From assembly GCA_949358305.1 (NCBI GenBank), contig OX442314.1, positions 12,207,060 through 12,271,059 on the forward strand: 64,000 bases of DNA. Reading direction: 5' to 3'. Positions within the stretch are counted from its first letter, which is position 1. Each line of letters opens with the position of its first letter. Below the pieces are notes generated by a model. It had not been told where the DNA came from. It did not search any database and saw nothing but the letters and a program-made list of their open reading frames with translations. Position numbers and translations under genes: made by a program. This stretch comes from Strigamia acuminata. Taxonomy: Eukaryota; Arthropoda; Chilopoda; Geophilomorpha; Linotaeniidae. Positions 4,411 through 63,979 of the stretch are shown here, piece after piece.

Positions 4411-6062
4411 TTAGTCGTATACCATAGCTCTCACCCCAATACCGTTGCAAATTCCCTTTGCTGAGATATCGAAATCTCTTCGAAAGTTGACCATTTCCGG
4501 ACACTTAATTTGAAGGCAATCGAAGTATTGCGTATCCTAGAGATTAAAAAAGTTATAGTGAAAGCACAAAATTGTTTAATTTTTAGTTACATCTCCATAG
4601 TGAGTAAACACATCCTTTGCACAGTCGGCAAGTTTCGTGCCAAGTGTATCTTTATTCTGTTAGTCAGATGTACAAAAAGGTTATCTGTGAGCAATAGTGA
4701 AATAGAAAAAAACCCAATACTCACACTATTGATGGAATAGGATTGCAGCAGGCCTACAAATTTGTTGTGATCAATTAACTGGTTTTTATGGTGCTGCGTA
4801 TAAAAAGCAAATCATTTGTCAGATCTAAATTGAATTATTAAAAGCTTGACTTGGACATACAATGTTCAGCGCTCTGTTATGACAAACTCCGTAAACGAAA
4901 TAAGCAAAGTCACAATCCTGAAATATTTAAATGAACAACAAATTTATAATTGGAAAGCAGTAAGAGGCGGCCGTCCATAAATTAAGTAATGCACTAAGGG
5001 GGAGGGTGTTTCAAATTTTTTTTACGTTCCAAGTAAAATTTTTTTTTTAATTTTTAACCCTCAGTTGGACAATCTGCAAAGACGACGCTTTGGTGCCCAT
5101 AATGTACCAATTTGGGGACAAAATAATTAAATCCGGAAGGCCCGTAGCTGAAGCGCTGTTAGGGTAGTGTGACAAATTGCCACACTTAGCGCTATTGTTT
5201 GGTTAAAAATATTAATTTTATTAAGTGCTTGTTTTGTTGTGTATACATAGTAGTGAGAATGAATTTGGAACGAATTTGGAACGAATTTGGAACGAAATTG
5301 GAACGAAATTGGAACCGTAATCATAACATAATCACTTGTGTTGGACTACTAGCGCCATACGGCGTCTGATGGTAAAAATTAGAAGCACTAAGTAGAAGTG
5401 CTTTTATTAGATTGGGAGAAGCCAACTTAAATTTAAGCTGGAATTTCTAAGGGGCAGAATTTTCAAAGGTGAATAAAGAAAAAAAAAGTACAGAAAAAAA
5501 AAATTCTCCCATTCAAGAAGAGTGTTGTCCTCAAAATGGTATAGGGTTGTCCTTCTGAGGGTTAATAATAAAAATATAAGTATTTTTTATGTTTTTTGGT
5601 AAATTTGGGGGGGGATTTTAGTTTTGTTACATAATTCGGGGTCATTAGGTTCGGGAATCTGTTACGACCATGTTACAGAGGGGGTTTAAAAATCCTAAAT
5701 TTTGCGTTACATAATTTATGGGCGGTCTCTAACACAATAAGAAATATGTTCTAACCAAATATACTAGTAGGTACTTACAAATTTATCTTTGATCATAGCG
5801 TCAACGTCGGCTTTGCAGTCTGCATGCATCGTTTGACTCTTAAAATAAATTTTAGTTTTAACAATCAGTTAATTACAAAATGTGCTATTGTGTAAGTAAA
5901 AAAATACAACCTCCTTAATCAACTTCTGCGAATCGAAGCATTCCTGAAATAAATAACATCGTATAGATTTTACAGTTTAAAAGTTTAAATACACATTCAG
6001 TTTACATAAGCTGCAGCAAATGAGGACGAAACTGCAATAACTAAGAAAATGCTCAGCATCAT
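4411..6062 (-). CDS. Copy 1 of tandem secreted eight-cysteine microexon family, intact
   Basis: Seven exons on the minus strand: 6062-6006, 5943-5911, 5838-5779, 4917-4861, 4793-4725, 4656-4591 and 4536-4411. All junctions are GT...AG and phase 0, giving 155 residues. Exon 1 encodes a signal peptide (MMLSIFLVIAVSSSFAAAY), so the product should be secreted. The mature part has eight Cys in the order ECFDS, HADCK, DCDFAYFVYGVC, ADCAKD, FDCLQIKC and GIC. A signal AATAAA follows the stop by about 25 nt. The start is the first of two adjacent ATGs conserved across copies. Intron 3 is swollen by a Harbinger-type MITE. No homologue was recognised. The C-x13-C-x9-C stretch resembles the C4-C5-C6 spacing of insect odorant-binding proteins, but the remaining pattern does not fit. 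Confidence 0.8.
4964..5729. mobile_element. PIF/Harbinger-type MITE inside intron 3 of copy 1
   Basis: The left end gaggcggccgtccataaatt and the right end (reverse complement gagaccgcccataaattatg) are inverted repeats sharing CCGYCCATAAATTAWGTAAYGC. Both are flanked by TAA (4,961-4,963 and 5,730-5,732). A 3-bp TWA duplication is typical of PIF/Harbinger. No transposase is present. The equivalent intron of copy 7 (39,498-39,582) runs uninterrupted through the same site and shows the empty state. Confidence 0.75.
5261..5315. repeat. 11-bp tandem repeat inside the MITE
   Basis: Five head-to-tail copies of gaatttggaac; the last two read gaaattggaac. The repeat lies within the Harbinger-type MITE. 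Confidence 0.9.
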
Positions 6063-6480
6063 TTTGGAAGACTGAAATGAGAGAATTGTATAAATTAAAC
6101 AAGTTGTAAGAATGATTTCTTACTATTTTTGGACAGGACTTGAAACGTACTGGTGATTAAAAATGTAATTAACAATTTAAATAGGATCTGTTCTTTATTC
6201 ATATAGTGCAGAATATAAGATTTCATTTATTGGTTTTGGCATGATGGTTTGCTCGAATTCCACAGGTTATTGTGTATAGTTAATGCTGAGATATAAACAT
6301 TGGGTATCAATGATTAAATATTTAAATCCTGTATGAAAGTAATGGCATAATTTGAAAATATCATTTTACAACACTTTGGTGAAATGGGACACTTTCAGAA
6401 TTAAATTTTACATATTATCCCACAAAATCTATTTTTTTTTTCCTTCTTAAAAATTAGATTTATAATAAAATTGTTTAACT
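6063..6480 (-). promoter_or_regulatory. Conserved upstream block of copy 1
   Basis: This block recurs upstream of nearly every copy. Reading away from the ATG on the minus strand, a CATTTCAG acceptor lies about 10 nt before the ATG. Further up is a TCCT|GT-type donor in a segment reading like GATCCAGTACGTTTCAAGTCCTG, suggesting a non-coding first exon. Beyond that is a conserved ATCTTATATTC word that could serve as a TATA element. The repeated preservation of this arrangement supports a promoter and 5' UTR intron. Exact transcription starts are unknown. Confidence 0.5.
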
Positions 6481-8480: not shown

Positions 8481-9729
8481 ACACCAGTCGCAATTCTGGC
8501 GTGCATGTTTGGGATGGATGCATGCAGCATCCAGCATTCAATAGGATGCTAATCCCCTTAATCATGTAGTGTATAAATGTAACCTTGTACAGGTCGAACC
8601 TCGCTGTTACGAACAGGTTGTGGGAGCAATGAATGATTCGTACTAGCGAGAGTTCTTACAACGAGTATTTCGTTAGAATGAATTAGTTTGTTATAACAAG
8701 AAATTTCGGAAACATGAACCCTCTTTATTATTCCCATTGGGTGAGTATAATAGTTTGTTGTTCACCCGGAATACAACTTGATGAAGGATAAAATGTGACG
8801 AATAAATAATCACCGTTACATAAGCTTACATGATTGATATGGAACGTATTTTAATTGCTTTGTAATGGAATACAGTAACTTTACTTAAGAAATGTCTTCC
8901 ATATATCATCACCGGTATCATAACAAATTCCCCTTGCTGACATGTGAAACTCTCTTTGAAATTTTCCCACTTCCGGACACTGTATTTGAAGGCAATCGAG
9001 ATACGGCTCAATCTAGGGATTACAAAAATATTAGTGAAAACACAAAATGTTCAATTTTTAAGTTACATCTCCTCCGTGAGTAAACATTTCGTTTTCACAG
9101 ACGGAAAGTTTATTGAAAAGTGATTCTTTATCCTGTTAGTCAGTTGTACAAAAAGGTTATCTATTAGCAAATGTGAAATTTGAAAGTATCTAATACTCAC
9201 ATCGTGGTTGGAATAAGATTGCAATTCCTTTACGAATTTTTCATGATCAATTTGCTGGAAGTTATTATTCTGCGTATAAAAAGCAGAGAAACCATAAGAC
9301 ATAAAGAGAATTATTAAAAGCCTGACTTGTACTTACTATGCTGCGCGCTCTTATATGACAAACTCTGTATATGGAATAAGCAAAGTCACAATCCTGTAAG
9401 ATTTAAATGAACAAATAAATTATAATTGGAAGGCAGTAACAACATTAAGGTGACTAACTTGTAAGATAAGTTGGGTAGTACTAATTTGATGGTGCTCTAC
9501 AACGTTGTAATTGAAAATTTTTCTCTAACCTGATTGGTTTAGAAGTAAGCAAGTGAATGACCTTGAAAATGGCCTTTAAGGTCAAATTTGATGACATCAT
9601 TGGATTCCTCTTACCCAACTTCCTATACGATCGCTTTATCAAAGTTGGCCGAGATGCAATTGCTCAGGAAATATTTAGAGGGGACCAGACTTTTAGAACA
9701 CCCTGTATAACCCCCAATTCATTTGAATA

Positions 9730-10805
9730 AAATTAGTTCTCTCCAATCGTTCTAGCATGTAATAATCGTACTTTCAGCAACATAACAACACTCCCGTTAA
9801 TATTATTTTTGCTGCTCAGAACATCAATCTCACGTCCAAGTACTCTGCTGACCGCATTCAGTGCTGTTAAGCTACTGTTGCCAACCATTCTCCTCCCACT
9901 TACTAATATTTTCAATACTATCATTGACTCGTCCACTTAACCCATTGCCTGGAAACATTCTGCCATCACCCCTCTTTTCAAAAGTGTTGATAAATTCCTC
10001 ATCTCAAACTTCCGCCCTATCCTTCTCCTCCTCCTTTATCTAAACTGGCGGATCGCTGCATCCTTTTGCAAATTTGCCCCACCATTACGAAAAATTCCTC
10101 CCTCAAATAATTTGGCTCTCACCCTGGTACCAATGCCCTCCAAATCATTCTTACACAGTACTTCAAAATCATCCGTTGTTGCAACTTGCGTTGTCACATT
10201 CACATTGCCAAAACTGATGTGTCCAAGGCTTTCGACACCCATCTCAGTCCCACATCCTCACTTCTTTGGAAAAGCAGTCTATTGGCCTTTCCCCATTGTT
10301 GCTCGTTTCGTCTTACCTCTCCAACGGGTCGTTTCATATTGCCTCTGATCCCTGTGTTCCCCATTATCGGTGGGGTTATCCAGGGCTCCGTGGTTGGCCC
10401 TTTACTTTTCAATTCTGTTTCTAATCCTATCCTTTACCTTCTGCTAACGTCTAACATCCGCTCTTATGTTGACGATAATTTCCTTTCATGTATAACTCAT
10501 ACAAATTCTAGTATTAACCCCTCTGATCTTTTTTCTGCTGATCTCTCTATCCTATCTGATTGGTATTCTGCTCATGATATGAGCCTAAACCCTACTAAAA
10601 CCAAAATCACGACTTTCAAACGGACTCCTCACGCGAGGTTTTCCCACCCCACTGATTCTATTCCCATCCTTGGACTTACTCTTGGCCCACACTTGACTTT
10701 TGTCCCCCATATCTCTTACCTTCTTACTAAATTCCTTTTCCGCTCCGGGTTTATTGTTAAATACCTTCGTCGTTGTATTATCACTCGTTCCGAAATGTCA
10801 AAGTA
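9730..10805 (+). pseudogene. LINE (non-LTR) reverse transcriptase fragment, decayed
   Basis: Plus-strand fragment of a non-LTR reverse transcriptase, frameshifted throughout. Recognisable pieces in order: a PLFKS-like block (about 9,980), NFRPI-like (about 10,010), DVSKAFDT (about 10,205), GGVIQGSVVGPLLFN (about 10,370), the catalytic box SYVDDNF (about 10,465) and LSDWYSAHDMSLNPTKTKI (about 10,550). This order is that of Jockey/CR1-type LINEs. The 3' end is lost at the Tc1 insertion (10,810) or truncated there. It lies in intron 3 of copy 2. Confidence 0.75.
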
Positions 10806-11175
10806 TATACAACTCCTTGCCAAAAAAATGGAATAATCAATTTTTGACAATGCTTTTTCATTTTATAATTGTAATTTGAAGACGCCCATACAAAATTATG
10901 AATCGTGCTTTTAGTATATAAAACTACAATTATTAAGCTACCATTTGGTCGAAACAGAACAATAAAGTCACTTCTGGTCGCTATTTTATTCAAATTTAAA
11001 CACGGACAAAAAAATGGAATATTTTTTTTCCTGTGCCAAAAAAATAGAATAATCCAATAAAGTAATTGAATTTTGCAAATTAGTATACGCTTTACGTTAG
11101 ATGACGCCATACGTACATCGCCCACACACATCTAAATATGTCTCAGCATGTCTGGCCAGTGTGAAGTTCTAATTC

Positions 11176-12620
11176 ATGACAAACATGGGTGGCAAAAAAG
11201 ACTTGTCACCTGCGACGAGAAAAGTAATTCTAAAGTTCTATCAAGACAATAAAACGCAAGCAGAAATCGCCAAGGCTGTTAACTGTAGCCAATCTACAGT
11301 GTCAAAAGTTCTCAAACAAGTCAATTCAAATCATGGACTCCACAACAACCGTGAAAATTGTGATAGAAAGCGCTCAACAACTGCCAGAGATGATCGAAAA
11401 CTGTGCACAATTGTGAGGAAAAACCGATTTAAATTGACTTGACAATATCATAATATGTGGAAACAGGGAAATATAGCTACTTCCCATTGCACAACTGTCC
11501 GTCGACTTCATGAACTGAACTTTAAAAGTTGTGCACCAAACGTAAGCCACTGTTAACACAGAAGCAACGACAAAAACGAGTTAAGTGGACGTCGGAGGAT
11601 TGGGCAAACGTAATTTTCAGTGATGAATCGAAGTTTTGTATTTCATATGGTGACTGGGGTGTCACGGTTTGGAGAACAAAGGATGAGGCATATCACCGAA
11701 CAACTTTAAAGCAATGTGTGAAATTTCAGTGAAGTGTGATGATATGGGGTTGTATGTGCACACGAGGTGTTGGGCACATGACAACCATCAAGGGGACTGT
11801 TAATTCTGAAGAATATCAAGATCTACTCGAATATTTCCTAATTCCATCTATTGAGGACCTTTTCTCCGATGATGATGATGCTGATGTCATTTTTCAGCTA
11901 GATTTGGCCTCTGCCCATGCTTCGAAATCAACCAAAGAATAGTTTGAAACACACAACTTCAATGTACTTTCAGGCTGTCATTAAAGGTCAAGTGCACTGA
12001 GTAGGATTTTTTTATTTTCTGAAAGCCCATATTAAAAAACTAATAATTATCGGGTAAAAGATTAAATTGTTTTAGTAATTATTTTATAATAACAATCCAA
12101 AAACGTAGTTAACAAAAAGCAATGCATGATGGTCGCAGACGTCTTGCCCTGCGTCATCAGTTCGAATCAGACAGTCATGCACACGCGCAGACTGACTGTC
12201 GATTCAAAATTCGATTCGTAATTTTTTAAATGATTCAAGATTGTTCAAAAATGTTTTTTTTATTTAGCATTGATAGCAACTAGGACAAAATTATATTTTT
12301 AAGAATTTAAAATTAATCCTGTCATTGAAAAACAATGGATTGATTGAGGTCGGACATCTTGGATCCACCCAGATCCAAGAACTGGATCCAGGTCAAATGA
12401 ACTTTAGAACTGACTACGTCATACTCCCATCACGCATTGCTGTTTGATTCTTACGTTTTTGGATTATTATTATAAAATAATTACCGCAACAATTTAATTT
12501 TTTTTATAATGATTATTGGTTTTTTAGTACGGGCTTTCAGAAAATGTAAAAATCCCACTCAGTGCACTTGACCTTTAAGGCAAGAGGATACCTGACCAAA
12601 TATTAAGTTCTTTTCATGTG
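11176..12620 (+). pseudogene. Tc1-like transposase, inactivated
   Basis: Segment 11,176-11,442 encodes the paired-type HTH (LSPATRKVILKFYQDNKTQ, then AEIAKAVNCSQSTVSKVLK). Segment 11,529-11,732 encodes the first catalytic Asp in WANVIFSDESKF. Segment 11,736-11,942 encodes MIWGCM and the second Asp region (FQLDLASAHASKSTKE). A frame break falls between the first two segments; in-frame stops occur after the HTH segment, between the catalytic segments (11,733-11,735) and after KSTKE (11,943). The block with the third acidic residue (DWPxxSPDLNPIE in the family) is missing. Only a C-terminal KARGYLTKY remnant follows the nested element near 12,580. It cannot encode an active enzyme. Confidence 0.8.
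11985..12574. mobile_element. TTAA-target MITE with long inverted repeats, nested in Tc1
   Basis: The ends read AGGTCAAGTGCACTGAGT inverted, flanked by TTAA on both sides (11,981-11,984 and 12,575-12,578). TTAA is the target of piggyBac-type transposases. The inverted arms continue well past 120 bp with scattered differences (for example tttctgaaagccc and ccaaaaacgta on both arms), so nearly the whole element can fold on itself. No ORF. It lies inside the C-terminal coding region of the Tc1 transposase. Confidence 0.8.
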
Positions 12621-13628
12621 TATTTGATTATGTTTCAATAAAAATAATTACTTTATTGGATTATTCTATTTTTTTGGCACAAGAAAAAAAATATTCTATT
12701 TTTTTGTCCGTGTTTAAAGTTGAATAAAATAGCAACCAGAAGTGATTTTATTGTTCTGTTTCGACCAAATGGTCGCTTAATAATTGTAGTTTTATATACT
12801 AAAAGCACGATTCATAATTTTGTATGGGCGTCTTCAAATTACAATTATAAAATGAAAAGGCATTGTCAAAAATTGATTATTCCATTTTTTTGGCAAGGAG
12901 TTGTTATGTTATTTGTATTTTATAAGAAAATGTTTTTTCAATTCATAAAATAAAGATTTATGCTGTTTTTTTTTCAATATTCGTTTTTATTTAGTTTATT
13001 GCTTGCTTTGTCAGGAAAGCAAACAATTTTCTAATTTTTTTATTGGTTGTTTTGTCTGGAAAGCAGTCAAAATGTCAGCCAGTGTTTTGATCTATTTTAT
13101 GGTATCACTACACAAGTCAAATGGCTCGACCAATGGAAAATAGGCTAGAGTATAGTATACTTACTCTTTTAGCACCAACGACAGATTTGACAGCACGCCT
13201 ACAAGCTTCATACATCCATTGACTCTTAAAATAAATTTTACTGTTAGCAATGAGTTAATTATTTAATTTGTGTGTAACTAAGAAATACAACCTGCGCAAT
13301 ATATTTCCGCGAATTGAAGCATTCCTAAAATAAATTACATTTGTATTTACAGATTTTATAGTTTGAAATAAACGTTTAGTTTACATATACTGCAGCAAAT
13401 GAGGACGAAACAGTAATAACAATGAAAATGCTCAGCAAGTCAGCATAATTCTAGAAAGCTGAAATGACAATGGTAAAAAGAAATCATTCATTACATTTGT
13501 AAAATTTCTTATGTTTGCACAGGACTTGAAAAACGTACTGGATCCATATGGTGATTAAAAAAAGTAATTGAAAATGTAAGGTAGGTTGTTTATTCACTTA
13601 CTTGTTAGCGTAGAATATAAGATTTTAT

Positions 13629-14456
13629 TTAGTAGTTTAGTTTTGGTATAACCATTTCCGGACAGTGAACTTGAAGGCAATTGTAGTACGGCACAACCTA
13701 GAGATTAAATTTTTTTAATGAAAGCACGAAATGTTCAGTTTTTAGTTACATCTCCTCCGTGAGTAAACATCTCGGATTTGCAGCTGACAAGTTTCTCGTC
13801 AAGTTGATCTACATTCTGTTAGTCAGTTGTACAAAAAGGCTATCTAAGAGCAATAGTAAAGTTTAAAAAATCCAATACTCACATTATTGGTGGAAATTGA
13901 TTTCAACAAGTCTACAAATTTTTCGTGATCAATAAACTGGTATTTATTTTGCTGCGTATAAAAAGCAAGTTAATTGTAAGATGTAAACCGAATTATTAAA
14001 AGGTTGACTTGGACATACAATTTCGAGCGCTCTGATATGACAAATTTCATAAAGGAAATAAGCTAACTCACAATTCTAAAATATTTAAATGAGCAATAAA
14101 CTAATACGGAGTACCATAATTGATAAACAGTAATAGAACGAGAAATTTGTAGCCTACATGCATTTTTATTGAGGACTCCTCCTTGAACCATAAGTCTGCA
14201 TTTTTTATGGAAAAGTTGACTCTTAAAATAAATTTTATTTTTAATAATAAGTTAATTACGTAATGTGTCATCTTCTACATAAATAAATACAACCTGCTTA
14301 ATGAACAGCTTTGAATCGAAGCATTTCTAAAATAAATTAAATTGTATTTACAGATTTTACAGTTTAGAAGTTTGAAATACAAGTACACATTCAGTTTACA
14401 TATGCTACAGCAAGTGAGGAGAAAGAAGCAATAACGATGAAGATGCACAGCATCAT
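13629..14456 (-). CDS. Copy 3 of the microexon family, C-terminus replaced
   Basis: Exons 14456-14400, 14326-14294, 14221-14162, 14075-14019, 13951-13883, 13815-13750 and 13697-13629. The signal peptide starts MMLCIFIVIASFSSLAVAY. Cysteines 1-7 are in place (KCFDS, KKCR, NCELAYFLYEIC, VSCKSE, NCLQVHC). Exon 7 is only 69 nt: after CPEM the sequence jumps at about 13,652 into the upstream block of copy 2. The protein therefore ends VIPKLNY and lacks Cys 8. An AATAAA word overlaps the new stop. The exon 3 donor is GC (AAT|GCATGT); its sister copy 5 has GT there in the ancestral sequence. The gene may be expressed as a shorter protein or be dying. A deletion between copies 2 and 3 explains the fusion. 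Confidence 0.65.
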
Positions 14457-15563: not shown

Positions 15564-16411
15564 TTAATCGTAATAATACCTCGCCCTAACACCTTCGCAA
15601 ATTCCTTTTCGTGAGAGGTCATAATCTCTTCGAACATTAACAATTTCCGGACACTGAATTTGTAAGCAATCGAAGTATTGCGTATCCTAGAGATTAAAAA
15701 AGTTATAGTAAAAGCACAAAATTGTTCAATTTTTAAGTTACATCTCCTCCGTGAGTAAATACATCGTTTGCACAGACTGAAAGTTTTTTTGTAAGTGATT
15801 CTTTATTCTGTTAGTCAGTTGAAGAAAAAGGTCATCTGTGAGCAATTTTTCTAAATTTAAAAACTTTCAATACTCACTTCATTGATGGAATAGGATTTAA
15901 GTAAATTTACAAATTTTGCGTGATCAATTAGCTGGGATTTACTGTGCTGCGTGTAAAAAGCAAATCAATCGTCAGATGTAAACAAAATTATTAAAAGTTT
16001 GACTTTCTACATACTATGGCGAGCGCTCTGTTATGACAAATTCCATAAATGAAATAAGCGAACTCACAATCCTAAAATATTTGAATGAATAACAAAGTAG
16101 TAATTGCAAAGTAAGTACGTACTTACATAATTATTGTTGACCACAAGTTTAACTTCTTGTTTGCATTCGTTATGGATCCATTGAGCCTTAAAAAAAATTT
16201 TATTTTTAACTTTATTACGTAATGTGTCATCTTCTAAATAAATAAATAAAACCTGTTTAATGTATATCTTCGAATCGAAGCAATCCTAAAATAAATTACA
16301 TTGTATTTACAGATTTTATAGTTTGAAAGTTTGAAATAAACGTTTAGGGTTTACATATGCTGCAGCAAATGAAGACGAAACAGTAATAACGATGAAAATG
16401 CTCAGCATCAT
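15564..16411 (-). CDS. Copy 4 of the microexon family, intact
   Basis: Exons 16411-16355, 16285-16253, 16186-16127, 16071-16015, 15946-15878, 15807-15742 and 15686-15564, all phase 0, giving 154 residues. The signal peptide reads MMLSIFIVITVSSSFAAAY. The eight Cys are in DCFDS, NECKQ, DCEFAYFIYGIC, SVCAND, FDCLQIQC and GIC. The C-terminus ends in a Tyr-rich RYYYD. An AATAAA lies about 25 nt past the stop. It is the closest sister of copy 6 in exons 2-7, but exon 1 and the upstream block match copies 2, 9 and 10 instead. Expected to be a secreted, disulfide-bonded protein; function unknown. Confidence 0.82.
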
Positions 16412-20418: not shown

Positions 20419-22038
20419 TCAGTCGTATTGATAGCCCCTCACTCCAATACCTTGACAAATTCCCTTTACAGAAAAATCGGATTCTCTTCGAACATTAACC
20501 ATTTCCGGACAGTGAACTTGAAGGCACAACCTAGAGATTAAATTTTTTTTTATGAAAGCACAAAATGTTCAGTTTTTAGTTACATCTCCTCCGTGAGTAA
20601 ACATCTCGGATTTGCAGCTGACAAGTTTCTCGTCAAGTTGATCTACATTCTGTACAAAAAGGCCATCTAAAAGCAATAGTAAAGTTTAAAAAATCCAATA
20701 CTCACATTATTGGTGGAAATTGATTTCATCAAGTCTAAAAAATTTTCGTGATCAATAAACTGGTATTTATTGTGCTGCGTATAAAAAGCAAGTTAATTGT
20801 AAGATGTAAACCGAATTATTATAAGCTTGACTTGGACATACAATTTCGAGCGCTCTGATATGACAAACTTTGGTAAAACTTCATAAAGGAAATAAGCTAA
20901 CGGACAATCCTGAAATATTTAAACGAGCAATAAACTAATACGGAGTACCATAATTGATAAACAGTAATAGAACGAGAAATTTGTAGCCTACATACATATG
21001 GGCATAAATTAAAATCCCACTAAAGTGGCTTGGATTTCCACTAAAAAAAAACTAAATCTTACACTGACTGGTTTTTCCACTATCGGTAATTTTTTGTCCC
21101 ACTAATTTAACTAAGCCAAAAAAAACTATTTTTTCCACTAAAAATATTTATTTAAACCCAACTTATTTTTCCACTAAAAAAACTTATTACATCCACTTTT
21201 TCCTCTATTATGAAATGAAGGCCCGGCATCTCGACGGGGAGTCCGAGGTCTTGTTGGGACTGGGTCCCGACATGGGACTAGGACTGGGGCCTTGGCGGGG
21301 ACTCGGTTGCGAGGGGCATCGAGGTCTTGTTGGGACTGGGCGGGGACTCGTTTGCAAGGGGCATTGAGGTCTTGTTGGGCCCCGACACGTGACTAAGACT
21401 GGGGCTTTGGCAGGGACTCGCTTGCGGGAGCGGATGACTGTTGGGGGGCTCGTAGACCATGCGGGGGGGATGGTTGGTCATCCTCTTTGCCCGCTGAGAC
21501 GGACTTAAGGTGCAAAACGTTCGCAAAACGTTCGCAAAACTATCTTACCAAAGTAGTAATAGTAGTGGTAAAATCAGTTTTTTCTTGCCAATTTAATTTT
21601 AGTGGAAAAAAATAGTTTTTTCGCCTTAGCTAAATTAGTGGGACAAAAAATTACCGATAGTGGAAAAATCAGTCAGTGTGAGATTTAGTTTCTTTTTAGT
21701 GGAAATCCAAGGAACTTTAGTGGGGTTTTAAATGGGACCCCATACATATTTATTGAGGACTCCTTCTTGAACCATAAGTCTGCATTTTTGATGGAAAAGT
21801 TGACTCTTAAAATAAATTTTAATTACTTTTAACAATAAGTTAATTACGTAATATGTCATCTTCTAAATAAATAAATACAACCTGCTTAATGAACAGCTTT
21901 GAATCGAAGCATTCCTAAAATAAATTACATTATATTTACAGATTTTACAGTTTAGAGGTTTGAAATACACATTCAGTTTACATATGCTACAGCAAGTGAG
22001 GAGAAAGAAGCAATAACGATGAAAATGGACAGCATCAT
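20419..22038 (-). pseudogene. Copy 5 of the microexon family, broken by two indels
   Basis: Exons 22038-21982, 21914-21882, 21805-21746, 20909-20842, 20774-20706, 20649-20584 and 20530-20419. Exon 4 is 68 nt instead of 57 (an 11-nt insertion). Exon 7 lost 14 nt between two GGCA words relative to copy 3, giving a stop at 20,497-20,495. Both change the frame. The original stop is at 20,421-20,419. A hAT-like element (21,000-21,741) sits at the exon 3 donor, changing GTATGT to GTATGG, and a Gypsy element occupies the upstream block at 22,183. It is the sister of copy 3 (signal peptide MMLSIFIVIASFSSLAVAY). It is clearly inactive. Confidence 0.85.
21000..21741. mobile_element. hAT-like MITE carrying a GC-rich internal repeat
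   Basis: The ends are inverted: gggcataaattaaaatccca on the left and, as reverse complement, ggggtcccatttaaaacccc on the right. Subterminal ccactaaa/tttagtgg words are frequent. The flanks are ATACATAT on both sides (20,992-20,999 and 21,742-21,749), an 8-bp duplication fitting the hAT nTnnnnAn preference. The centre (about 21,215-21,520) is GC-rich and partly repetitive (ggtcttgttgggactggg, ggcggggactcg). The element splits copy 5 at its exon 3 donor. Confidence 0.8.
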
Positions 22039-36024: not shown

Positions 36025-36872
36025 TTAGTCGTAAACATACTTGATGGCTCTCGCCCCTACACCTTCGCAAATTCCTTTTTTTGAGAGGTCATAATCTCTT
36101 CGAACATTAACAATTTCCGGACACTGAATTTGTAAGCAATCGAAGTATTGCGTATCCTAGAGATTAAAAAAGTTATAGTGAAAGCACAAAATTGTTCAAT
36201 TTTTAAGTTACATCTCCTAGGTGAGTAAATACATCGTTTGCACAGACTGAAAGTTTTTTTGTAAGTGTATCTTTATTCTGTTAGTCAGTTGAAGAAAAAG
36301 GTTATCTATGAGCAATTTTTGAAATTTAAAAACTTTCAATACTCACTTCATTGATGGAATAGGATTTAAGTAACTTTACAAATTTTGCGTGATCAATTAG
36401 CTGGGATTTACTGTGCTGCGTGTAAAAAAGAAATCAATCGTCAGATGTAAACAAAATTATTAAAAGTTTGTCTTTCTACATACTATGGCGAGCGCTCTGT
36501 TATGACAAATTCCATAAATGAAATAAGCGAAATCACAATCCTAAAATATTTGAATGAATAACAAAGTAGTAATTGCAAACTAAGTACGTACTTACATAAT
36601 TATCCTGGACCACAATTTTAACTTCGTTTTTGCATTCTGTATGGATCCATTGAGCCTTAAAAAAAAAATTTATTTTTAACTTTGCTACGTAATGTGTCAT
36701 CTTCTAAATAAATAAATAAAACCTGTTTAATGTATATCTTCGAATCGAAGCAATCCTAAAATACATTAAATTGTATTTACAGATGTTACAGTTTAGAAAT
36801 ACACATTCAGCTTACATATGCTGCAGCAAATGAGGAGAAAGCAGCACTGACGATGAAAATGAACAGCAGCAT
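36025..36872 (-). CDS. Copy 6 of the microexon family, intact
   Basis: Exons 36872-36816, 36755-36723, 36655-36596, 36540-36484, 36415-36347, 36277-36212 and 36156-36025, all phase 0, giving 157 residues. The signal peptide is MLLFIFIVSAAFSSFAAAY. Eight Cys in DCFDS, TECKN, DCDFAYFIYGIC, SVCAND, FDCLQIQC and GIC. Exons 2-7 are sister to copy 4 but exon 1 and the upstream DNA resemble copy 1, so the gene is a mosaic. Between copies 4 and 6, exon 3 has 8 differences in 60 nt, all in codons that change the residue, against 1 in the adjacent 55 nt of intron. Secreted; function unknown. Confidence 0.82.
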
Positions 36873-37881: not shown

Positions 37882-38609
37882 CGAGGGGCGCGACAATCAG
37901 AATCTGCTTGCCAGAGATTCGAATCTTCTTTGGGATTCGAAAGATTCGGATGGGATTCGGAAAGATTCGGAAAGATTCGGGGGATTCGGCTGGGATTCGG
38001 GGGGATTCGGATAGATTCGGGGGATTCGGGGGGATTCGAATGAGATTCGGGGAGATTCGGATGGGATTCGGTGGGATTCGGCGGGATTCGGTGGGATTCG
38101 GATGGGATTCAGAAAGATTCATAGGATTTTTTTCAAATAAATTTAGTGAAGTGGGAATGTTTTTTCATTTTAATTTTAACTCTTAGTGAAATGTGGTAAA
38201 ATACGAGGTAAAATAGCACGCAATCAAATGTAATCACAATTGCGAACAATGATGAATTCCGGGCTCGATTCCGGGATTAATTTGAAGTTCGCGCTAAATC
38301 ATAAATGCGCATGCGCAGATACCGCGCAGCGAGGTGCGCAGGTATAATTTCTTCCGATGATGATTTTACGGACAATTTCAAGGACAATTTCAAGGAAGTT
38401 TCTTGTAAAAATATTATTACATTTTTTAATCTTAAATTTTGTTTTTATTTTTCTCGATTTGTATACAACTTAAAGATTCGAGATTCGAAGATTCGGTGGG
38501 ATTCGGAAAGATTCGGGTGGGATTCGGAAAGATTCGGGTGGGATTCGGAAAGATTCGGGCGGGATTCGGAAGCCATTGTCAGAGATTCGGTTGAATGTCG
38601 CCCCCCTCG
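37882..38609. mobile_element. MITE with 8-bp duplication and internal GATTCGG minisatellite
   Basis: The ends cgaggggcgcgaca and its near-complement tgtcgcccccctcg are inverted. Both are flanked by CATGTAAG (37,874-37,881 and 38,610-38,617). Two minisatellite clusters built from gattcggnggg-type units (37,930-38,120 and 38,485-38,575) lie next to the ends in the same orientation. The unique middle (about 38,130-38,470) has no gene. An 8-bp duplication suggests a hAT-type mover. ORFs across the clusters are repeat artefacts. Confidence 0.75.
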
Positions 38610-38991: not shown

Positions 38992-39871
38992 TTAATTCAT
39001 AATAGCCCTCACTCCAAGACCGATACAAAGGCCCTTTGCAGAGAAATTGTATTCGAAGCGAACATTTATCATTTCCGGACACAACTTTTCAAGACAATCG
39101 TAGTATAGTTCAGGCTAGAGATTTAAAAAAATATTAGTGACAGCACAAAATGTTAAATTTTTCAGCTACATCTCCTTCGTGAATGAATATCTCTTTTTTG
39201 CAGGGGGCAAGTCTATTTGTAAGTGATTCTGCATTCTGTTAGTCATTTGTACAAAAACGTTATCCATGAGAAATTGTGAAATTTATAAAAAATACAATAC
39301 TCACTGGATTGGTGGAATGGGATTTCATTAACGCTACCATTTTTGCGTGATCAATTTGCTGGTATTTACTTTCCTGCGTATAATAAGCAAATCAGGCGTA
39401 AGATATAAACCGAATCATTAAAAGCTTGACTTGGACATACTATGCCGAGCAGTCTGTTATGACAAATTTCATAAACAAAATAAGCTAACTCACAATCCTG
39501 AAATATTTAAATTAACATTAATATAATAATTGAAAAGCAGTAGCAAACATGAAATATGTTCTAATGACATACAAGTACTTACAAAATCATTAGTGACTAC
39601 TTTCTTAACCGCTTGTTTGCATTCTGGATGGATCAATTTACTCTTAAATAAAATTTTGCTTTCAATAATAAGTTAATTATATAATGTGTTTATGCGTAAT
39701 TAAAGAAATACAACCTGTCTAATCCAGTGGCGCGAATCGAAGCATTCCTAAAATAAATTACATTAAATTTACAGATTTTACAGTTTAGTAGTTTGAAATA
39801 CACATTCAGTTTACATATGCCATTGTAAATGTCGACGAAACAGCAATAACTATGAAAATGTGCAGCATCAT
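38992..39871 (-). CDS. Copy 7 of the microexon family, intact
   Basis: Exons 39871-39815, 39747-39715, 39642-39583, 39497-39441, 39373-39305, 39235-39170 and 39114-38992, all phase 0, giving 154 residues. Signal peptide MMLHIFIVIAVSSTFTMAY. Eight Cys in ECFDS, PECKQ, DCELAYFVYEIC, APCKKE, YDCLEKLC and GLC. The exon 6 donor is GTAGCT rather than GTAACT. It is one of the more divergent copies. Its uninterrupted intron 3 serves as the empty-site reference for the MITE in copy 1. Confidence 0.82.
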
Positions 39872-40812: not shown

Positions 40813-41636
40813 TTAACAAATTCCTTTCCGTGAATTGAAGAAATCAGCCCGTGCTTGTTCCATCTCTGGACACTGTTTTTGAAGGCAATCGAAATACGGC
40901 TTAAGCTAGAGATTGAAAAAAATATTAGTGAAAACACATACAATGTCCAATGTTTTAAGTTACATCTCCGTTAAGAGTACATATTTCTTTTTCACACGGG
41001 GCAAGTTTATTGGCAAGTGTATCTTTTTTCTGTCGATTAATAAAGTTATCTATCATCAGCAATTGAAATTTTTTAAAATTAAATACTCACGTCATCAGTT
41101 GAAAAGGATTTCAATAACTCTACATATTTTGCGTGATCAATTCGCTGGAATTTAGTGTTCTGCGTATAAAAAGCAATAAAATGATAACATAAATAAACCT
41201 AATCACTAAAAGCTTGACTACAGTATGCCTTACTATGCCGTATGCTCTAAAATGACAAGTGCAATAAACAAAGTGAGCAAAGTCACAATCCTGAAAGATA
41301 TCAATGAACAAGAATGACTTAACACGAAATACAAGCCTGTAACATACTTACAAAATGTGGTACGTAGGTCAAATTTTTCACACGTTGTTGGCAATCTGCA
41401 TGGGCCGGTTGAGCCTGAAAATAATTTTTTTTTGTTACAAATTTGAATTATTTTTTGCGCTATTGCTTAAGTGAGAAATACAACCGCTGCAATATACTTC
41501 TGCGGGTCGAAGCAATCCTAAAATAAATTAAATTGTATTTACACATTTTTCAGTTTGAAAGTTTGTAAAAACAGTTTACATTTGCAACAGCAAATGGAGA
41601 TGCAACTGCAATAATTACGGAAATGTATAGCAACAT
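40813..41636 (-). CDS. Copy 8 of the microexon family, intact but shortened
   Basis: Exons 41636-41580, 41517-41485, 41414-41352 (63 nt, one extra codon), 41290-41234, 41159-41091, 41029-40964 and 40905-40813, all phase 0, giving 145 residues. Signal peptide MLLYISVIIAVASPFAVAN. The stop comes directly after Cys 8 (RKGIC), about ten residues earlier than in copies 1, 4, 6 and 7. Besides the eight framework Cys (DCFDP, ADCQQ, DCDFAHFVYCTC, APCEKE, FDCLQKQC, GIC), exon 4 has an extra Cys (VYCTC) and exon 6 another (EICTL). These could form a fifth disulfide. The most divergent copy in the window. Confidence 0.78.
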
Positions 41637-47859: not shown

Positions 47860-48689
47860 TTAATAATTTTTGTTTTTGCAAATTCGCTTTATATGCTTTT
47901 TATAGTCAGATTGAATTTTTTTCACTTCTGGACACCTATTTTGAAGGCAAGTGAAGTATGGGTTCAGCTAGAGATTTAAAAAAATGTAAGTAAAAACACA
48001 ATGTAATGTTCCATTTTTAAGTTACATCTCCTTTGTGGCCATATCGAACTTTTGCACAGATGGCAAGTTTACTGTCGAGGTCTATTTTATCCTGTTGGTT
48101 GTGAAAAAACATTTTCTATGAGAAATTGTGAAATTAAAAAATAATCGAATACTCACATCATGGGTGGAAAATGCTTTTATGTAATCAACGAATTTTGTGT
48201 GATCGAGTCGCTGGAATTTATTGTTCTGAAAACAAAAAGCAAATCAATCGTAAGAAATAAAGCGAATTATTAAAAGCTTGACTTGGACATACAAAGCCGT
48301 TTCTTCTATTCATGCAAATTCCATAAAGGAATTTAGCTAAGTCACAATCCTGAAACATTTAAATGAACGAGCAGTAACACAACTAGAAATATGATCTTAC
48401 AACATGTAGGTACTTACATTTTTGTCTTTGTTCATAAGTTTAACATCAAGTCTGCACTCGTCATGGGTCTGTTGCATCTGAAAAATAATTTTTTTAACAA
48501 TAAGTTAATTGTGTGATTAAATAAATACAACCGACGAAATAAATCTCCGCGAATCGAAGCAATCCTAAAATAAATTACATTTGTATTTACAGATTTTATA
48601 GTTTGAAAGTTTGAAATAAACGTTTAGTTTACATATGCTGCAGCAAATGAGGACGAAACAGTAATAACGATGAAAATGCACAGCCACAT
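47860..48689 (-). CDS. Copy 9 of the microexon family, intact
   Basis: Exons 48689-48633, 48564-48532, 48477-48418, 48349-48293, 48225-48157, 48091-48026 and 47967-47860, all phase 0, giving 149 residues. Signal peptide MWLCIFIVITVSSSFAAAY. Eight Cys in DCFDS, DECRL, DCDLAKFLYGIC, AICAKV, FTCLQNRC and RIC. The C-terminal exon is Lys-rich and short, a feature of copies 9-11 only. Compared with copy 10, exon 3 has 12 differences in 60 nt (8 residue changes) against 3 in the adjacent 68 nt of intron 3. The extra Cys in the signal peptide (WLC) is probably removed on secretion. Confidence 0.8.
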
Positions 48690-53856: not shown

Positions 53857-54680
53857 TTATTTTTTGCAAATTTGCTTTATATGCTTTTTATAGTCAGATT
53901 GAATTTTTTTCACTTCTGGACACCTATTTTGAAGGCAATCAAAGTATGGGTTCAGCTAGAGATTTAAAAAATGTAAGTAAAAACACAATGTAATGTTCCA
54001 TTTTTAAGTTACATCTCCTTTGTAGGCATATCTTAAGGGCGCACAGATAGCAAGTTTACTGTCGAGTTCTATTTTATTCTGTTGGTTGTGAAAAAACATT
54101 TTCTATGAGAAATTGTAAAATTAAAAAATTATCGAATACTCACATCATGGGTGGAAAATGTTTTCATGTAATCAACGAATTTTGTGTGATCGAGTCGCTG
54201 GTATTTATTGTTCTGAAAACAAAAAGCAAATCAATCATAAGAAATAAAGCGAATTATTAAAAGCTTGACTTGGACATACAAAGCCGCTTCTTTTATTCAT
54301 GCAAACTCCATAAAGGAAATAAGATAAGTCACAATCCTGAAACATTGAAATGAACGACCAGTAACACAACTAGAAATATGATCTTACAACATGTAGTTAC
54401 TTACATTTTTGCCGTAGGTCATAGTTTTAACAGTACGTCTGCAATTTTCATGGGTCTGTTGCATCTGAAAAATAATTTTTACTTTTAAGAATAAGTTAAT
54501 TGTGTGATTAAATAAATACAACCGACGAAATAAATCTCTGCGAATCGAAGCAATCCTAAAATAAATGACATTTGTATTTACAGATTTTATAGTTTGAAAG
54601 TTTGAAATAAACGTTTGGTTTACATATGCTGCAACAAATGAGGACGAAACAGTAATAACGATGAAAATGCAAAGCATCAT
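53857..54680 (-). CDS. Copy 10 of the microexon family, intact
   Basis: Exons 54680-54624, 54555-54523, 54464-54405, 54336-54280, 54212-54144, 54078-54013 and 53955-53857, all phase 0, giving 146 residues. Signal peptide MMLCIFIVITVSSSFVAAY. Eight Cys in DCFDS, ENCRR, DCDLSYFLYGVC, AICAPL, FDCLQNRC and QIC. It ends two Lys after Cys 8. Exon 3 is almost that of copy 11 while exons 1-2 and the upstream DNA follow copies 4 and 9, so it is a mosaic. Exon 5 differs from copy 9 at three bases, all changing residues. Confidence 0.82.
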
Positions 54681-56279: not shown

Positions 56280-59200
56280 TCACTCCGACACTTCCAACGA
56301 ACAAAGTCTTTGTACTGGTCTTCTCAAAATCTTTCCGCCGGGTAGCAATAGTTTGCACGAACGAATTTTTCCGTCTCTTCCGACGAATGTCTCGAAAACT
56401 TTTGCCGTCTTCCAAGTTAAACGAGGTTGCCCTTGTTCCTGGATAAGGACTAAATCTTCGACTTGAATCTCTCTGGAGGCACGTACGTGTCGAAATTCCC
56501 TCAATTCGACCAAATATTCATGCGACCATCGTCGCCACAGCAAATTTATAAGTCTTTGTCGTAGCTTCCATCGTTTTACAAGTTCTGGCCTCTTCGAATT
56601 ATTGACTTGACATTCTGAACTGTAGATATCCGGCAAACTGGTAATTCTTGTTCCGATTAAAAAGTGTGATGGGGTCAGTGGTTCTCGTTCTTCCGGATTG
56701 TCCGTCACGTAGGTTATTGGACGTGAATTGATTACTGCCTCAACCTCAGTTAGTACGGTGGTGAGCTCCTCGAAACATAATGACGATCGACCGAGAACCT
56801 TCTTGAGACTGAGTTTGACGGTTTTGACGAGGCGCTCCCAGAAGCCACCCCACCAAGGCGCCAATTCAACAATAAACTTCCATTGGATCTTGTGTTGTGA
56901 CAAAAATCCTTGTAATTGTTCGCCCGAAAATTCGTTGATAAAAAGAGCCAAATCCTTTTCTGCCCTCTTGAATGTCTTGGCATTGTCCGAGTATACGATG
57001 CTCGGGATTCCTCTTCGCGAAATTAAACGTTTGAATGCCATAATAAATTTTTCCGTGGTCAGATCGGACACCAATTCGAGGTGGACTGCTCGTACTACCG
57101 CACATGTAAATAGGGCGATATAGGCTTTCTCTCCATTTCGGGTGTAAAGCGGTCCTGCAAAATCCACTCCGATTATTTGAAATGGCGCTGCTCGATTGAT
57201 GCGATCCGCTGGAAGGAGTCCTATTGCTTGCGTCATTAGCTTTGCATTTATTCGTCGACAGGTTATGCACTTCGCGACGAACGTCTTGACCAATTTTCTG
57301 GCGCGCTGGGCCCAATACCTCGACCTAAACTCTGCCAAGGTGTCGCCGAGTCCTCCGTGTAGTGCTCGCTTGTGGCAATCTTGAATTATCAGTCTTGTTA
57401 ACGGCGAACTTGCATCCAGGATGATTGGAATAATGAAGTCTTTGGCTCCTGCATGATGTCGTATACGCGAATTAATTCGTAGCAATCCATTTTCGTCAAC
57501 AGCTATTGACATTTCTGACAACGGGGAGTTTTTGTTCAGTTTTACTTCATTCTGCAAGTTGTGCATTTCTTCCGCAAATTTTGAACGTTGCATAAAGCCA
57601 AACCAATAATTTTCTGCTTCTTCCACTTCTCTTGCTTTTATCGGACCAACAAATGATTGTCGCTTCCTAGCATTGCGTACGAAACGTAGAATCCAAGCGG
57701 TTATTCGAATCCCTCGGTTCCAACTGCCAAACTTCTCAACGTCAAAAATCGGGTCCATTTTCTTTTGAGACCGAGTCAAATTGATTTGAATTTCGACTTC
57801 TTCGAATTCTTCGACATTGTCATCCGAATTTTCCAATCCCTGTGGCCAGTGAGCTTCGGATTTTTTCAACCATTCAGGTCCGTTCCACCATTCGAAGTCG
57901 TTGATTAATTTTTCAGCTTCCATGCCCCTCGTTAGTTTATCCGCAGGATTGACCTTCCCCGGGCAGTGTCGCCAGCGAGCGACGTCTGTATTGGCGCGGA
58001 TCTCCCGGACGCGATTTGCAACGAATGGATTCGATTTCTTCTGCTGCTCACGAATCCAGAAATAGGTGATTGAAGAATCCGTCCAGTAGAAAACTCGCTG
58101 AACACCCAAAACTTGAATTTTTGTGGCGATTCGCGACAACAACAAGGCGCTCATTAGTTCGAGCTTCGGCAGCGTAAGTGACTTTAAGGGGGCAACACGC
58201 GATTTTGACAGGCAAAGCGAGACGTCGACTGTGTGTCCATTCTTGGTTCGGACGTAGAGCACTACGCCGTAAGCCTTCGGGCTCGCGTCACAGAAAAAAT
58301 GAAGTTCTTGCTGCGATTTGTCGTCTAAGTTCAGGCTGTAGGGACGCCCGACAGAAATCTTTCGTAACAACACGATTTGTTCAAACCAATGGGCCCATTG
58401 TTTCGCAACGTCGGGGGGCAGGGCATTATCCCATCCAATATTTCGTGCCCACAGCTCCTGGAACATCAGTTTTCCGATGATGGCAAAGGGTGAAGCGAAG
58501 CCCAAAGGGTCGTAAATTTTTGCAACTGACTGTACTATTTTTCTTTTCGATCCCTCGCCAGCAACAATCTTTTCTTCTGCCCATTCGCCAATTTCTAACT
58601 GCAATGTGTCTGCAACGTAGTCCCAGACCAAACCCAGCACGGTGGTTTGGTGTTTGTCGGAGTCCATTAATTTGGAATCTTCGGGGATTTCTTTGGCGAA
58701 AATTTCACGTAAACGTTGGGAGTTCGAGTGCCATTTGCGGAGCGGCATGTGGGCTTTCATCATCAGTTCTCGCGCCTCGTGGAAAATCGTTAACACTCGT
58801 TCTTCGGTGCGCATGGAGTCGAGTAAATCGTCAACATAAAATTTTTCTTTGATTTGTTCAACGGTGTCGGGGTATTGTGTCTTCATCTCCTCCAGATGTA
58901 ACTGAATCGAGTCATTCAGCAAGTAGGGGCTCGAAGAAACTCCAAAGACCACTCGAATTTGGCGCATAACTCGAGGGGTGAGGAAATCAAGTCCATTCCA
59001 ATTTTCAGGTACCCACAAGAAACTCACGTAATTTCGGTCCTGGAGTCGTAACAGCAACTGTAGAAATGCCTTCTCGATGTCGGATAAATACGCGATCAAC
59101 TCTCTTCTGAACAACACCAATAGCTTTAAAATTTCGGGCAGCAAATTCGGACCACTGTCCAAGCAGTCGTTTAACGACAATTCGTTTTTTCCCTTCGACG

Positions 59201-61552: not shown

Positions 61553-61570
61553 CCCGGGTTTCGGCACCAA
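61553..61570 (-). promoter_or_regulatory. BEL primer-binding site
   Basis: On the minus strand, immediately after the 5' LTR: TTGGTGCCGAAACCCGGG. It has the usual TGG start and resembles the remnant site at 778-795. The tRNA was not identified. Confidence 0.7.
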
Positions 61571-61954: not shown

Positions 61955-63128
61955 AGTTTTAAGAAATAATCAAATAAAAAAATAAAAAAAATAAAAAAAA
62001 ATTAATTGTAATTACTAATTACAATTCATTTACATTAAGAACACTTTGAAAGGGCATGAAGTTCTTATTTAACACCTGATTTCACTCAAATAAATTTTTT
62101 TATTTTGCATATTTTATGCCCATAAAACAAATTTTATTTTGCATAAAAATCCGAAGTCTAGTAATAATAATAATAATGGTCAAATCAAGAATGGTCTCAA
62201 ACAAATTTGGCGAAAACTTGCGGCAATCCGGGTTTACTATTTAATATTCGAGGGAATAACTAAATAAATCACTGTTGAGATGCCTTGTAGGACTTCTACT
62301 CAGCGGCCAGTTATGTCTAGGGGAATGATATAACACAAAATATACAAAGAATAATTGTTTTAATTGTTCCGAATGAAATACAAAATAATGATGTAATGGC
62401 AAAACGTCGTCTTAAATACACACTCACGGTTATCCGGCTCCAAGATGGCGTCGCATGAGCACAGCTCAATGCCAATATCTCCTCAAACACACAGCTTGGA
62501 TTTCCGTGTTGTTGATTAAAATCCTTTTTATTATATTCACATTTTTAAATCGAGGATGTAAAAATAAGAGGACGAATGGTTTTTACTGTTCCTGTAGCAG
62601 GAAAAATGAGTACAGTATTTGATAAAAAATTTCCATAAAACAAAAATTGAAAATAATTTTATAAACTAGATTGCAGAATAATGATACCAATCGATACAAT
62701 AAAAGTTGCTGCCCTTTTTGATAGTTGTGTGTTGATCAGAAAAACCAGTCCAAAAACCTCAGAATTGTAGCGCCTTCTGGTGCATAAAAACCTTGATGAA
62801 AACAAATAAAAACGAAAAAACTGCCACGAGACGGCTTAAGGATACACAACTTCACAGAGCTTGTTCCATAGCGGATACTGGGCTCATGGACACAATATTA
62901 TTATTAAATTATTGTGTCCAGCTGGACTTATAGGTATCTGCGAATTGTGAATCATGAATCGTCTTTATCCTTCCCGTTAGATGAGTATAATAATTGACTA
63001 TTCACCTTGAATGAATATTCGCAGAGAATTTAATCTAATGGAAGAATAGATTATTAATGACCTTTGCCTTAGCTTAGGTAGTTTTAATTGCTATTGTTGT
63101 GGATACAATACAGTCGTTGTTAAATGAC
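61955..63128. other. Resumed dispersed repeat, unknown segment, then 3' flank of copy 11
   Basis: 61,955-62,165 continues the dispersed repeat as at 19,090-19,275. About 62,165-62,520 is unique to this window and holds no recognisable gene. 62,520-63,128 is the shared 3' flank of copies 9-11, with a ggacacaata...tattgtgtcc hairpin near 62,889-62,920. Confidence 0.5.
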
Positions 63129-63979
63129 TTAATAATCTATTTTTTTGCAAACTCGCTTTATATGCTTTCTATAGTCATCTTGAATATCTTTCACTTCTGG
63201 ACACCTATTTTGAAGGCAATCGAAGTATGGGTTTAGCTAGAGATTTAAAAAATGTAAGTAAAAACACACAATGTAATGTTCCATTTTTAAGTTACATCTC
63301 CTTTGTAGTCATATCTAACTTTTGCACAGATAGCAAGGTACGTTATTGTCGAGTGTTGATTTACTCTGTCGGTTAAGAAAAATTTTTCGAGGGGAAATTG
63401 TGAAATTATAAAATAATCGAATACTCACATCATGGTGGGAAAAGTATATTATGTGCGCAACGAATTTTGTGTGATCGAGTCGCTGGACTATATTGTTCTG
63501 AATATAAACATCACATCAATCCTAAGACATAAAACAAATTATTAAAAGCTTGACTTGGACATACAAAGCCGCTTTTTCTATTCATGCAAACTCCATACAT
63601 GAAATAAGATAAGTCACAATCCTGAAACATTTAAATGAACGAGCAGTAACACAACTAGAAATATGATCTTACAACATGTAGTTACTTACTTTTTCGCCGT
63701 AGGTCATAGTTTTAACAGTACGTCTGCAATCTTCATGGGTCTGTTGCATCTGAAAAACAAATTTTACTTTTAACAATAAGTTAATTACATAAAATGTTAT
63801 TGTGTGATTAAAGAAATACAACCGACGCAATAAATTTCCGCGAATTGAAGCAATACTAAAATAAATTACATAGTATTTATAGATTTTACAGTTTAAAGGT
63901 TTTAAATGAACATTCAATTTACATAAGATTCAGCAAATGAGGCCGAAACAGCAATAACTAAGAAAATCCACAGTATCAT
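63129..63979 (-). pseudogene. Copy 11 of the microexon family, frameshift in exon 6
   Basis: Exons 63979-63923, 63855-63823, 63749-63690, 63621-63565, 63497-63429, 63365-63296 and 63236-63129. Exon 6 is 70 nt instead of 66: relative to copies 9 and 10, caagtttactg has become caaggtacgttattg. This shifts the frame and meets a stop before Cys 6. No alternative splice site in exon 6 restores the frame by eye. Other exons are open, with signal peptide MILWIFLVIAVSASFAESY and Cys in YCFNS, EDCRR, DCDLSYFMYGVC, FDCLQNRC and RVC. The upstream region runs off the window. Either a recent pseudogene or a local sequencing error. Confidence 0.75.

What the first reader, a model, noticed from the sequence alone, without database searches (positions are those of the whole stretch)
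4411..63979. Tandem array of at least eleven secreted eight-cysteine proteins made of phase-0 microexons
Seen directly: eleven copies, all minus strand, each with a signal-peptide exon followed by six short exons whose lengths (33, 60, 57, 69, 66 nt) are fixed in almost every copy while residues vary. All introns are phase 0, so exons are interchangeable modules. The framework is eight Cys with constant positions: C-x17-C-x13-C-x9-C in exons 2-4, then one in exon 6 and three in exon 7. I recognise no family. Parallels in organisation, not in demonstrated homology, are aphid gall-effector bicycle genes and other microexon secreted families. The C-x13-C-x9-C part also recalls odorant-binding proteins.
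Basis: partly seen in the sequence, partly recalled or inferred. Interest (0 to 1): 0.88.

Follow-up and report, generated by a model that had tools for sequence, protein, structure and literature searches.

The report
Centipede odorant-binding-like protein gene cluster
A centipede genome carries a cluster of about twenty fast-changing genes, each cut into seven tiny coding pieces, for small secreted proteins that look like remote relatives of insect odorant-binding proteins.

Summary
Seven (A, E, G, H, I, J, K) are complete seven-exon, phase-0 models, one (D) is altered and three are broken. The genome matches the venomous centipede Strigamia acuminata by assembly and chromosome lengths, so aphid gall genes are out; the published bicycle classifier gives about 1e-10 for each of 12 intact copies. 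The array is the middle of a ~99 kb cluster of 20 copies or pieces, with relatives elsewhere.

Best reading: a divergent branch of the arthropod odorant-binding ("OBP-like") superfamily. Top PDB profile hits are insect OBPs but sub-threshold (E 0.08-0.15; Pfam PBP_GOBP in 1 of 14 members, below cut-off). Against six OBPs that my search had not picked, the family's summed score beats 400 of 400 cysteine-fixed shuffles. Five cysteines follow mite-OBP spacing within 4 residues (chance about 2%). Young duplicates change amino acids faster than introns (0.087 vs 0.052, p 0.002), though not significantly faster than synonymous sites (p 0.55). Whether the proteins serve chemosensation or a gland/venom secretion is open: no fold prediction or expression data could be had.

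The parts
4411..6062 (-). Copy A, intact, 7 coding exons: 6062-6006, 5943-5911, 5838-5779, 4917-4861, 4793-4725, 4656-4591, 4536-4411; intron 3 is 861 nt
8881..13441 (-). Copy CB, broken: exons 1-3 at 13441-13165, exons 4-7 at 9393-8881; exon 1 has no in-frame ATG; 3.8 kb intron 3 with transposon pieces
13629..14456 (-). Copy D, altered: GC donor after exon 3, short exon 7 without the last Cys
   Evidence: end of exon 7 counted by hand
15564..16411 (-). Copy E, intact, 7 coding exons, 848 nt in all
20419..22038 (-). Copy F, broken: exon 4 split between frames, exon 7 start damaged, long intron 3 (low end approximate)
36025..36872 (-). Copy G, intact; young duplicate of E
38992..39871 (-). Copy H, intact
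40813..41636 (-). Copy I, intact; exon 3 of 63 nt, ten mature cysteines
47860..48689 (-). Copy J, intact; young duplicate pair with K
53857..54680 (-). Copy K, intact
63129..63979 (-). Copy L, broken: exon 6 split between frames
   Evidence: low end counted by hand
6063..6463 (-). Upstream block of copy A, shared with most copies: TATA-like CTTATATTCT, then a probable non-coding exon and a short 5'UTR intron (CTGT...ATTTCAG) just before the ATG; inferred
   Evidence: 9 upstream stretches aligned; ATTTCAG in 8 of 9, not in I

Best explanation
The genes encode a family of small secreted proteins (signal peptide plus a mature part of about 125-140 residues) that belong to, or descend from, the arthropod OBP-like superfamily: a bundle of short helices round a ligand pocket, held by disulfides. 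Mapped on the mite OBP VdesOBP1, C38-C62 would be its C2-C3 bridge and C104-C121 its C4-C5 bridge; C21 would pair with a C-terminal cysteine (C144 or C126) as its C1-C6 bridge, and C52 with the other to give a fourth, new bridge. Each microexon then carries about one structural element. The proteins carry hydrophobic small molecules outside the cell; tandem duplication and rapid change of the non-cysteine residues diversify what is bound. Shown: gene models, cysteine framework, cluster, fast replacement. Weakly shown: OBP relationship. Inferred: secretion (from the hydrophobic first exon; no signal-peptide program was run), fold, bridges, ligand carrying. Most likely use is chemosensory or general carrier secretion in a genus whose sequenced sister species was reported to lack ORs and insect-type OBPs; use in a gland or venom secretion is next.
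For: Pfam PBP_GOBP on copy Q/L067, E 0.0023, 18.4 bits, colinear. PDB profile search with 10 members: 3 of 4 hits at E<=10 are OBPs, E 0.076, 0.077, 0.15, with C62 and C104 on OBP C3 and C4; with 14 members 2 of 3 hits, E 0.11 and 0.12. Cys-fixed column shuffles: against 8 OBP targets real best 17.1 bits, 0 of 400 shuffles reach it (two targets had been picked); against six targets not so picked, summed score 23.4, 0 of 400; best score 8.9, 3 of 400. Spacing x16-x23-x41-x16 versus VdesOBP1 bridges 21/141, 41/68, 111/132 (passages), largest deviation 4, chance 0.017, and versus the Dermanyssus pattern x16-x18-x37-x15 (passage). OBP-like genes are reported from S. maritima and >20 in myriapods. 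Five of nine OBP genes of an aphid have seven exons. Yardstick: the true OBP ASP2 finds only itself in the PDB at E<=0.01.
Against: No significant database match: Pfam 1 of 14 members and below cut-off 22; the six window copies alone found no OBP in the PDB, nor did single members Q and L062. VdesOBP1 itself was not among the hits (I did not check that it is in the copy). Profile-profile comparison is weak and unstable: in register (probability 3-5%, 1 and 2 of 200 shuffles as good), out of register (score 20, above 500 of 500 shuffles, but six of seven true OBPs left out one at a time score 40-91 and the seventh, ASP2, 16). A non-OBP control (a CSP) scored 5.6, more than five of the six OBPs. 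Insect C2 and C5 are missing and the sixth cysteine does not fit the mite spacing. Helical periodicity was not significant in any of six exons (best p 0.066). The S. maritima genome paper reported no OBPs. No structure or expression data.
Confidence: 0.62

Rival explanations
1. A venom or defensive-gland family, possibly the published geophilomorph venom peptide GEOTX02 or a related unnamed family, whose resemblance to OBPs is only general (helices plus cysteines). It would act on prey or enemies and diversify in an arms race.
For: The animal is a geophilomorph centipede. GEOTX02 of S. maritima has 8 or 10 mature cysteines and several intron-bearing paralogue groups (passages). Replacement in four young pairs exceeds intron divergence (dN 0.087, intron 0.052, p 0.0019) while no cysteine changed in any of the four.
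Against: OBP profile signal. dN does not exceed dS significantly (p 0.55), and dS, not the introns, is the usual yardstick.
Confidence: 0.17
2. OBP-like proteins recruited into a gland secretion (venom, sternal defence glands or seminal fluid) and diversified there: the same fold, another use.
For: OBPs are reported from venoms of several insects and, among the families named for a Lithobius defensive secretion, general odorant-binding proteins (passages); fast replacement as above.
Against: No expression data; S. maritima venom is reported with 12 toxin families and no OBP among the names I saw (passages).
Confidence: 0.15
3. Aphid-type bicycle or other gall effector genes.
For: Microexons, hydrophobic first exon, tandem copies.
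Against: Species is a centipede; exons phase 0, not 2; classifier about 1e-10 in 12 of 12.
Confidence: 0.01

Closest known systems
Chelicerate OBPs (VdesOBP1 of Varroa, TurtOBPs, Dermanyssus OBP-like)
   Same: Secreted, similar size; spacing of the first five cysteines within 4 residues of VdesOBP1
   Different: Eight, not six, cysteines; sixth cysteine displaced; VdesOBP1 not recovered by sequence
Myriapod OBP-like proteins reported for Strigamia maritima (Vizueta et al., known here only through citing papers)
   Same: Same genus, OBP-like; more than 20 reported for myriapods
   Different: Not compared; sequences and gene structures not available here
Insect OBPs (PF01395), including seven-exon aphid OBP genes
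   Same: Weak in-register profile match around C3-C4; many small exons in aphids
   Different: Insect C2 and C5 absent, four other cysteines present; aphid introns far longer
GEOTX02, S. maritima venom peptide
   Same: 8 or 10 cysteines, intron-bearing paralogues, same genus
   Different: Not tested; said to have fungal relatives
Bicycle genes of aphids
   Same: Microexons, signal peptide, large family
   Different: Phase 2 exons, insect; classifier rejects

Membership tests
Insect OBP (Pfam PF01395) | Pfam gathering cut-off (22 bits) | tested here: not met
   1 of 14 members matched, 18.4 bits
Insect OBP (Pfam PF01395) | Six cysteines with insect spacing, C2-x3-C3 and C5-x8-C6 | tested here: not met
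   C2 and C5 positions lack Cys
Insect OBP (Pfam PF01395) | Profile similarity above chance | tested here: met
   0 of 400 shuffles on summed score, 3 of 400 on best score; but a CSP control scored 5.6
Chelicerate / OBP-like | C1-x16..19-C2-x18..26-C3-x37..42-C4-x15..20-C5 | tested here: met
   x16, x23, x41, x16; chance 0.017-0.032
Chelicerate / OBP-like | C6 8-9 residues after C5 | tested here: not met
   next cysteines at x4 and x22
Chelicerate / OBP-like | Sequence match to VdesOBP1 (7NYJ/7NZA) | tested here: inconclusive
   not among hits at E<=10; presence in the copy not checked
OBP superfamily | Five- or six-helix fold and disulfide pairing | not testable with these tools
Myriapod OBP-like (S. 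maritima) | Orthology to the published S. maritima sequences | not tested
   protein search switched off; the paper with the sequences was looked up and is not held
Bicycle | Internal exons in phase 2; published classifier above 0.72 | tested here: not met
   1.1e-10 to 1.7e-10 in 12 of 12 (coefficients)
GEOTX02 | Sequence and cysteine framework of the published peptide | not tested
   sequence not seen; only the count of 8 or 10 cysteines is known

The most novel reading that the evidence does not exclude
The centipede family is the missing link between insect and chelicerate OBPs: it shows insect-like sequence in register round C3-C4 together with the mite cysteine spacing and, probably, a tied N and C terminus, plus a fourth bridge. 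One short phase-0 exon per structural element would be the ancestral gene plan of the superfamily. In centipedes it became a fast-evolving secreted arsenal of ligand carriers.
Probability: 0.25. Interest if true: 0.75.

Novelty: new variant of a known kind. Interest (0 to 1): 0.52.

Why it matters
Whether the OBPs of insects and the OBP-like proteins of mites, ticks and myriapods share one origin is open; authors working on spider-mite OBPs say they found no evidence of a common ancestor in sequence databases (passage). A large myriapod family with features of both, a rigid exon plan and strong divergence between young copies would make that question testable through intron positions and disulfide maps. 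It would also show what a land arthropod without insect-type ORs uses as soluble carriers, or, if gland-expressed, an OBP scaffold turned into a secreted arsenal.

Tried and rejected
Aphid bicycle/gall effector: rejected by species and classifier. Insect origin: PF01395, PF03392 and a CSP query gave no exon-level hits and PF02949 one borderline hit; the tool states that such empty answers prove little, and the related S. maritima has two CSP genes, so these searches may simply be insensitive. Helix periodicity per exon: not significant. Profile-profile comparison: suggestive, unstable register. Relatives in viral contigs: 36 pattern stretches, none confirmed. NCBIfam: nothing meaningful among 14 members. 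Rfam: no match in the window. tRNAs: none (bacterial settings). PF00494, PF03022 and PF08395 marker searches never ran. Print searches: (Strigamia acuminata with gene family: 0 papers); some searches listed papers; of the 15 papers opened I saw passages only; none of the passages seen describes this cluster, which is no proof that none exists.
Full report
What is there. Scanning the minus strand for AG...GT-bounded open segments of the stated lengths and comparing them with the exons of copy A recovers eleven copies; missing exons, first and last exons were read by hand and six complete models written out; copy I was added later. A wider scan of the cluster, using the window and fetched loci that leave two gaps of 1.8 and 8.9 kb and one of 29 bases, lists 20 copies or pieces between C1:12181081 and 12280017, 18 on the minus and 2 on the plus strand. 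Twelve are complete with GT-AG splice sites, phase 0 introns, mostly 54-74 nt long, and a single terminal stop: A, E, G, H, I, J, K in the window and M, N, A2, Q, R in the flanks. All twelve keep the eight framework cysteines. In the window CB, F and L are broken and D is altered.

Whose genome. The window is C1:12207060-12271059 of an assembly of 237,517,015 bases in 157 contigs. A search of the paper library for 237.5 Mb and genome assembly returned two papers, one of them the genome note of the centipede Strigamia acuminata. Its table fits: 237.5 Mb, 158 scaffolds, a mitochondrial contig, chromosomes of 66.99, 37.79, 16.15 and 14.72 Mb (passages) against C1 66,985,994, C3 37,788,348, C6 16,154,901 and C8 14,714,770. 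I regard the species as settled by lengths; no sequence was compared with the public record.

Wider family. Copy E as DNA matches 32 places. Beyond the cluster, relatives lie on C1 near 6.46, 6.50, 11.62-11.65 and 14.15 Mb, on C8 at 5.15 Mb and on C3 at 23.87 Mb (several of these exon matches are weak, up to E about 0.7); a contig, C2, repeats the 14.15 Mb match. Complete seven-exon models with the same order were found for one C8 gene and the C3 gene, so the architecture predates these divergent branches (31-42% identity of the C8 protein to nine others).

What family. Pfam gave nothing for four window copies except one chance-level hit. A flank copy (Q, L067) matched PBP_GOBP at E 0.0023, 18.4 bits, below the cut-off of 22; it was the only one of 14 members to do so. 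Searching the PDB with profiles: six window copies, no OBP among 4 hits; ten members, three OBPs among 4 hits, E 0.076-0.15; fourteen members, two OBPs among 3 hits, E 0.11-0.12, the third a TRAF2 chain. Single members Q and L062 found no OBP. As a yardstick the true bee OBP ASP2 finds only itself at E<=0.01 and an aphid OBP finds two near-identical aphid OBPs and then two pheromone-binding protein chains at E 0.0035 and 0.0042. In a direct test the 14-member profile scored 17.1 bits on the OBP4 piece; 400 shuffles with cysteine columns fixed had mean 2.8 and maximum 11.1 for the best of eight targets. Because that target and 8bxu had been picked by the search, I repeated it with six other OBPs: summed score 23.4, reached by 0 of 400 shuffles; best score 8.9 (ASP1), reached by 3 of 400; 0 of 238 scored decoys (247 made) reached 8.9, but a CSP scored 5.6, more than five of the six OBPs. 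Profile-profile comparison was suggestive but changed register between runs. I read this as a real but remote relationship.

Cysteine framework. VdesOBP1 has bridges 21/141, 41/68 and 111/132 and five helices (passages). The centipede positions 21, 38, 62, 104, 121 give spacings 16, 23, 41, 16 against 19, 26, 42, 20; the largest deviation is 4, which a random eight-cysteine chain reaches with probability 0.017 (0.032 by summed deviation). The Dermanyssus pattern is x16-x18-x37-x15-x9 (passage). The sixth mite cysteine has no counterpart at the right distance; C126 and C144 are candidates, and C52 is new (it is missing in the C3 gene). On this mapping exon 2 carries the N-terminal strand with C1 and exons 3 to 7 one helix each; this is inference, and a test of helical periodicity per exon on 11 members was not significant (best p 0.066).

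Evolution. NG86 distances of the mature part: E-G dS 0.014, dN 0.051; J-K 0.076, 0.117; Q-R 0.154, 0.145; A-A2 0.050, 0.039. Pooled, dN 0.087, dS 0.072, intron divergence 0.052 over 1206 sites (introns over 400 nt left out). Replacement exceeds intron change (Fisher p 0.0019) but not synonymous change (p 0.55); synonymous and intron rates do not differ significantly (p 0.19). Over all 66 pairs of 12 genes the median dN/dS is 0.68. No cysteine changed in the four young pairs. So constraint outside the cysteines is weak or selection diversifies; the data do not prove positive selection, and intron constraint or gene conversion could contribute. E and G, and D and F, look like a duplicated two-gene block (by eye; E-G 88% identical).

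Regulation. The 400 bases upstream of nine copies align in most copies (poorly in I, F and H): a CTTATATTCT block, a conserved stretch ending CTGT, and ATTTCAG (8 of 9) just before the ATG, which suggests a non-coding first exon and a short 5'UTR intron (inferred).

What it does. Literature seen as passages: OBP-like genes were reported from S. maritima and more than 20 in myriapods, while the S. maritima genome paper reported no OBPs and no ORs, and two CSPs. OBPs are named for venoms and, in a Lithobius paper, among families of its defensive secretion. S. maritima venom includes GEOTX02 with 8 or 10 cysteines. I therefore favour extracellular ligand carriers of the OBP superfamily, with a gland or venom use as the main alternative; expression data would decide.

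Noticed in passing
window 23098-30341: Gypsy-type LTR element frames: a 1046 aa frame (23098-26238, gag-like by eye) and a 1343 aa pol frame (26310-30341, RT, RNase H, integrase), lying between copies F and G.
   Followed up: partly
window 31438-34185: Open frame of 915 aa with no Pfam match at E<=0.01, GC about 0.5, beside the Gypsy-type element.
   Followed up: partly
window 43090-46827 and 56280-61484: Copia-type (RVT_2) frame of 1245 aa and Bel-Pao (Peptidase_A17) frame of 1734 aa, lying between gene copies.
   Followed up: partly
window about 10186-12000: Reverse-transcriptase-like frame (10186-10836, by eye) and, by eye, a Tc1-like transposase start on the plus strand near 11180, within intron 3 of copy CB.
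   Followed up: no
window 37593-38590: Short tandem repeats of GGAATCTGTG and GGGATTCGGA types between G and H.
   Followed up: no
window 1259-1391, 2366-2469, 4140-4317: Repeats of TTCGTTATAACGAA and of ATTTCGTCGCC type, perhaps transposon ends.
   Followed up: no
L031 (C6:5584518-5585168): Open frame with a 7tm_6 (odorant receptor) match, E 2.7e-5 and 23.8 bits as a protein, below the cut-off of 25.8 (25.8 bits); S. maritima is reported to have no ORs, so perhaps a gustatory-type receptor.
   Followed up: partly
G000:C2 (484 kb) near 40-42 kb and C1 near 14.15 Mb: The two places give the same match lengths, scores and identities, as an uncollapsed haplotype or recent duplicate would.
   Followed up: no
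C1:12181945-12182790 and 12189376-12190721: The two copies on the plus strand, both intact, sit at the low-coordinate end of the cluster.
   Followed up: partly
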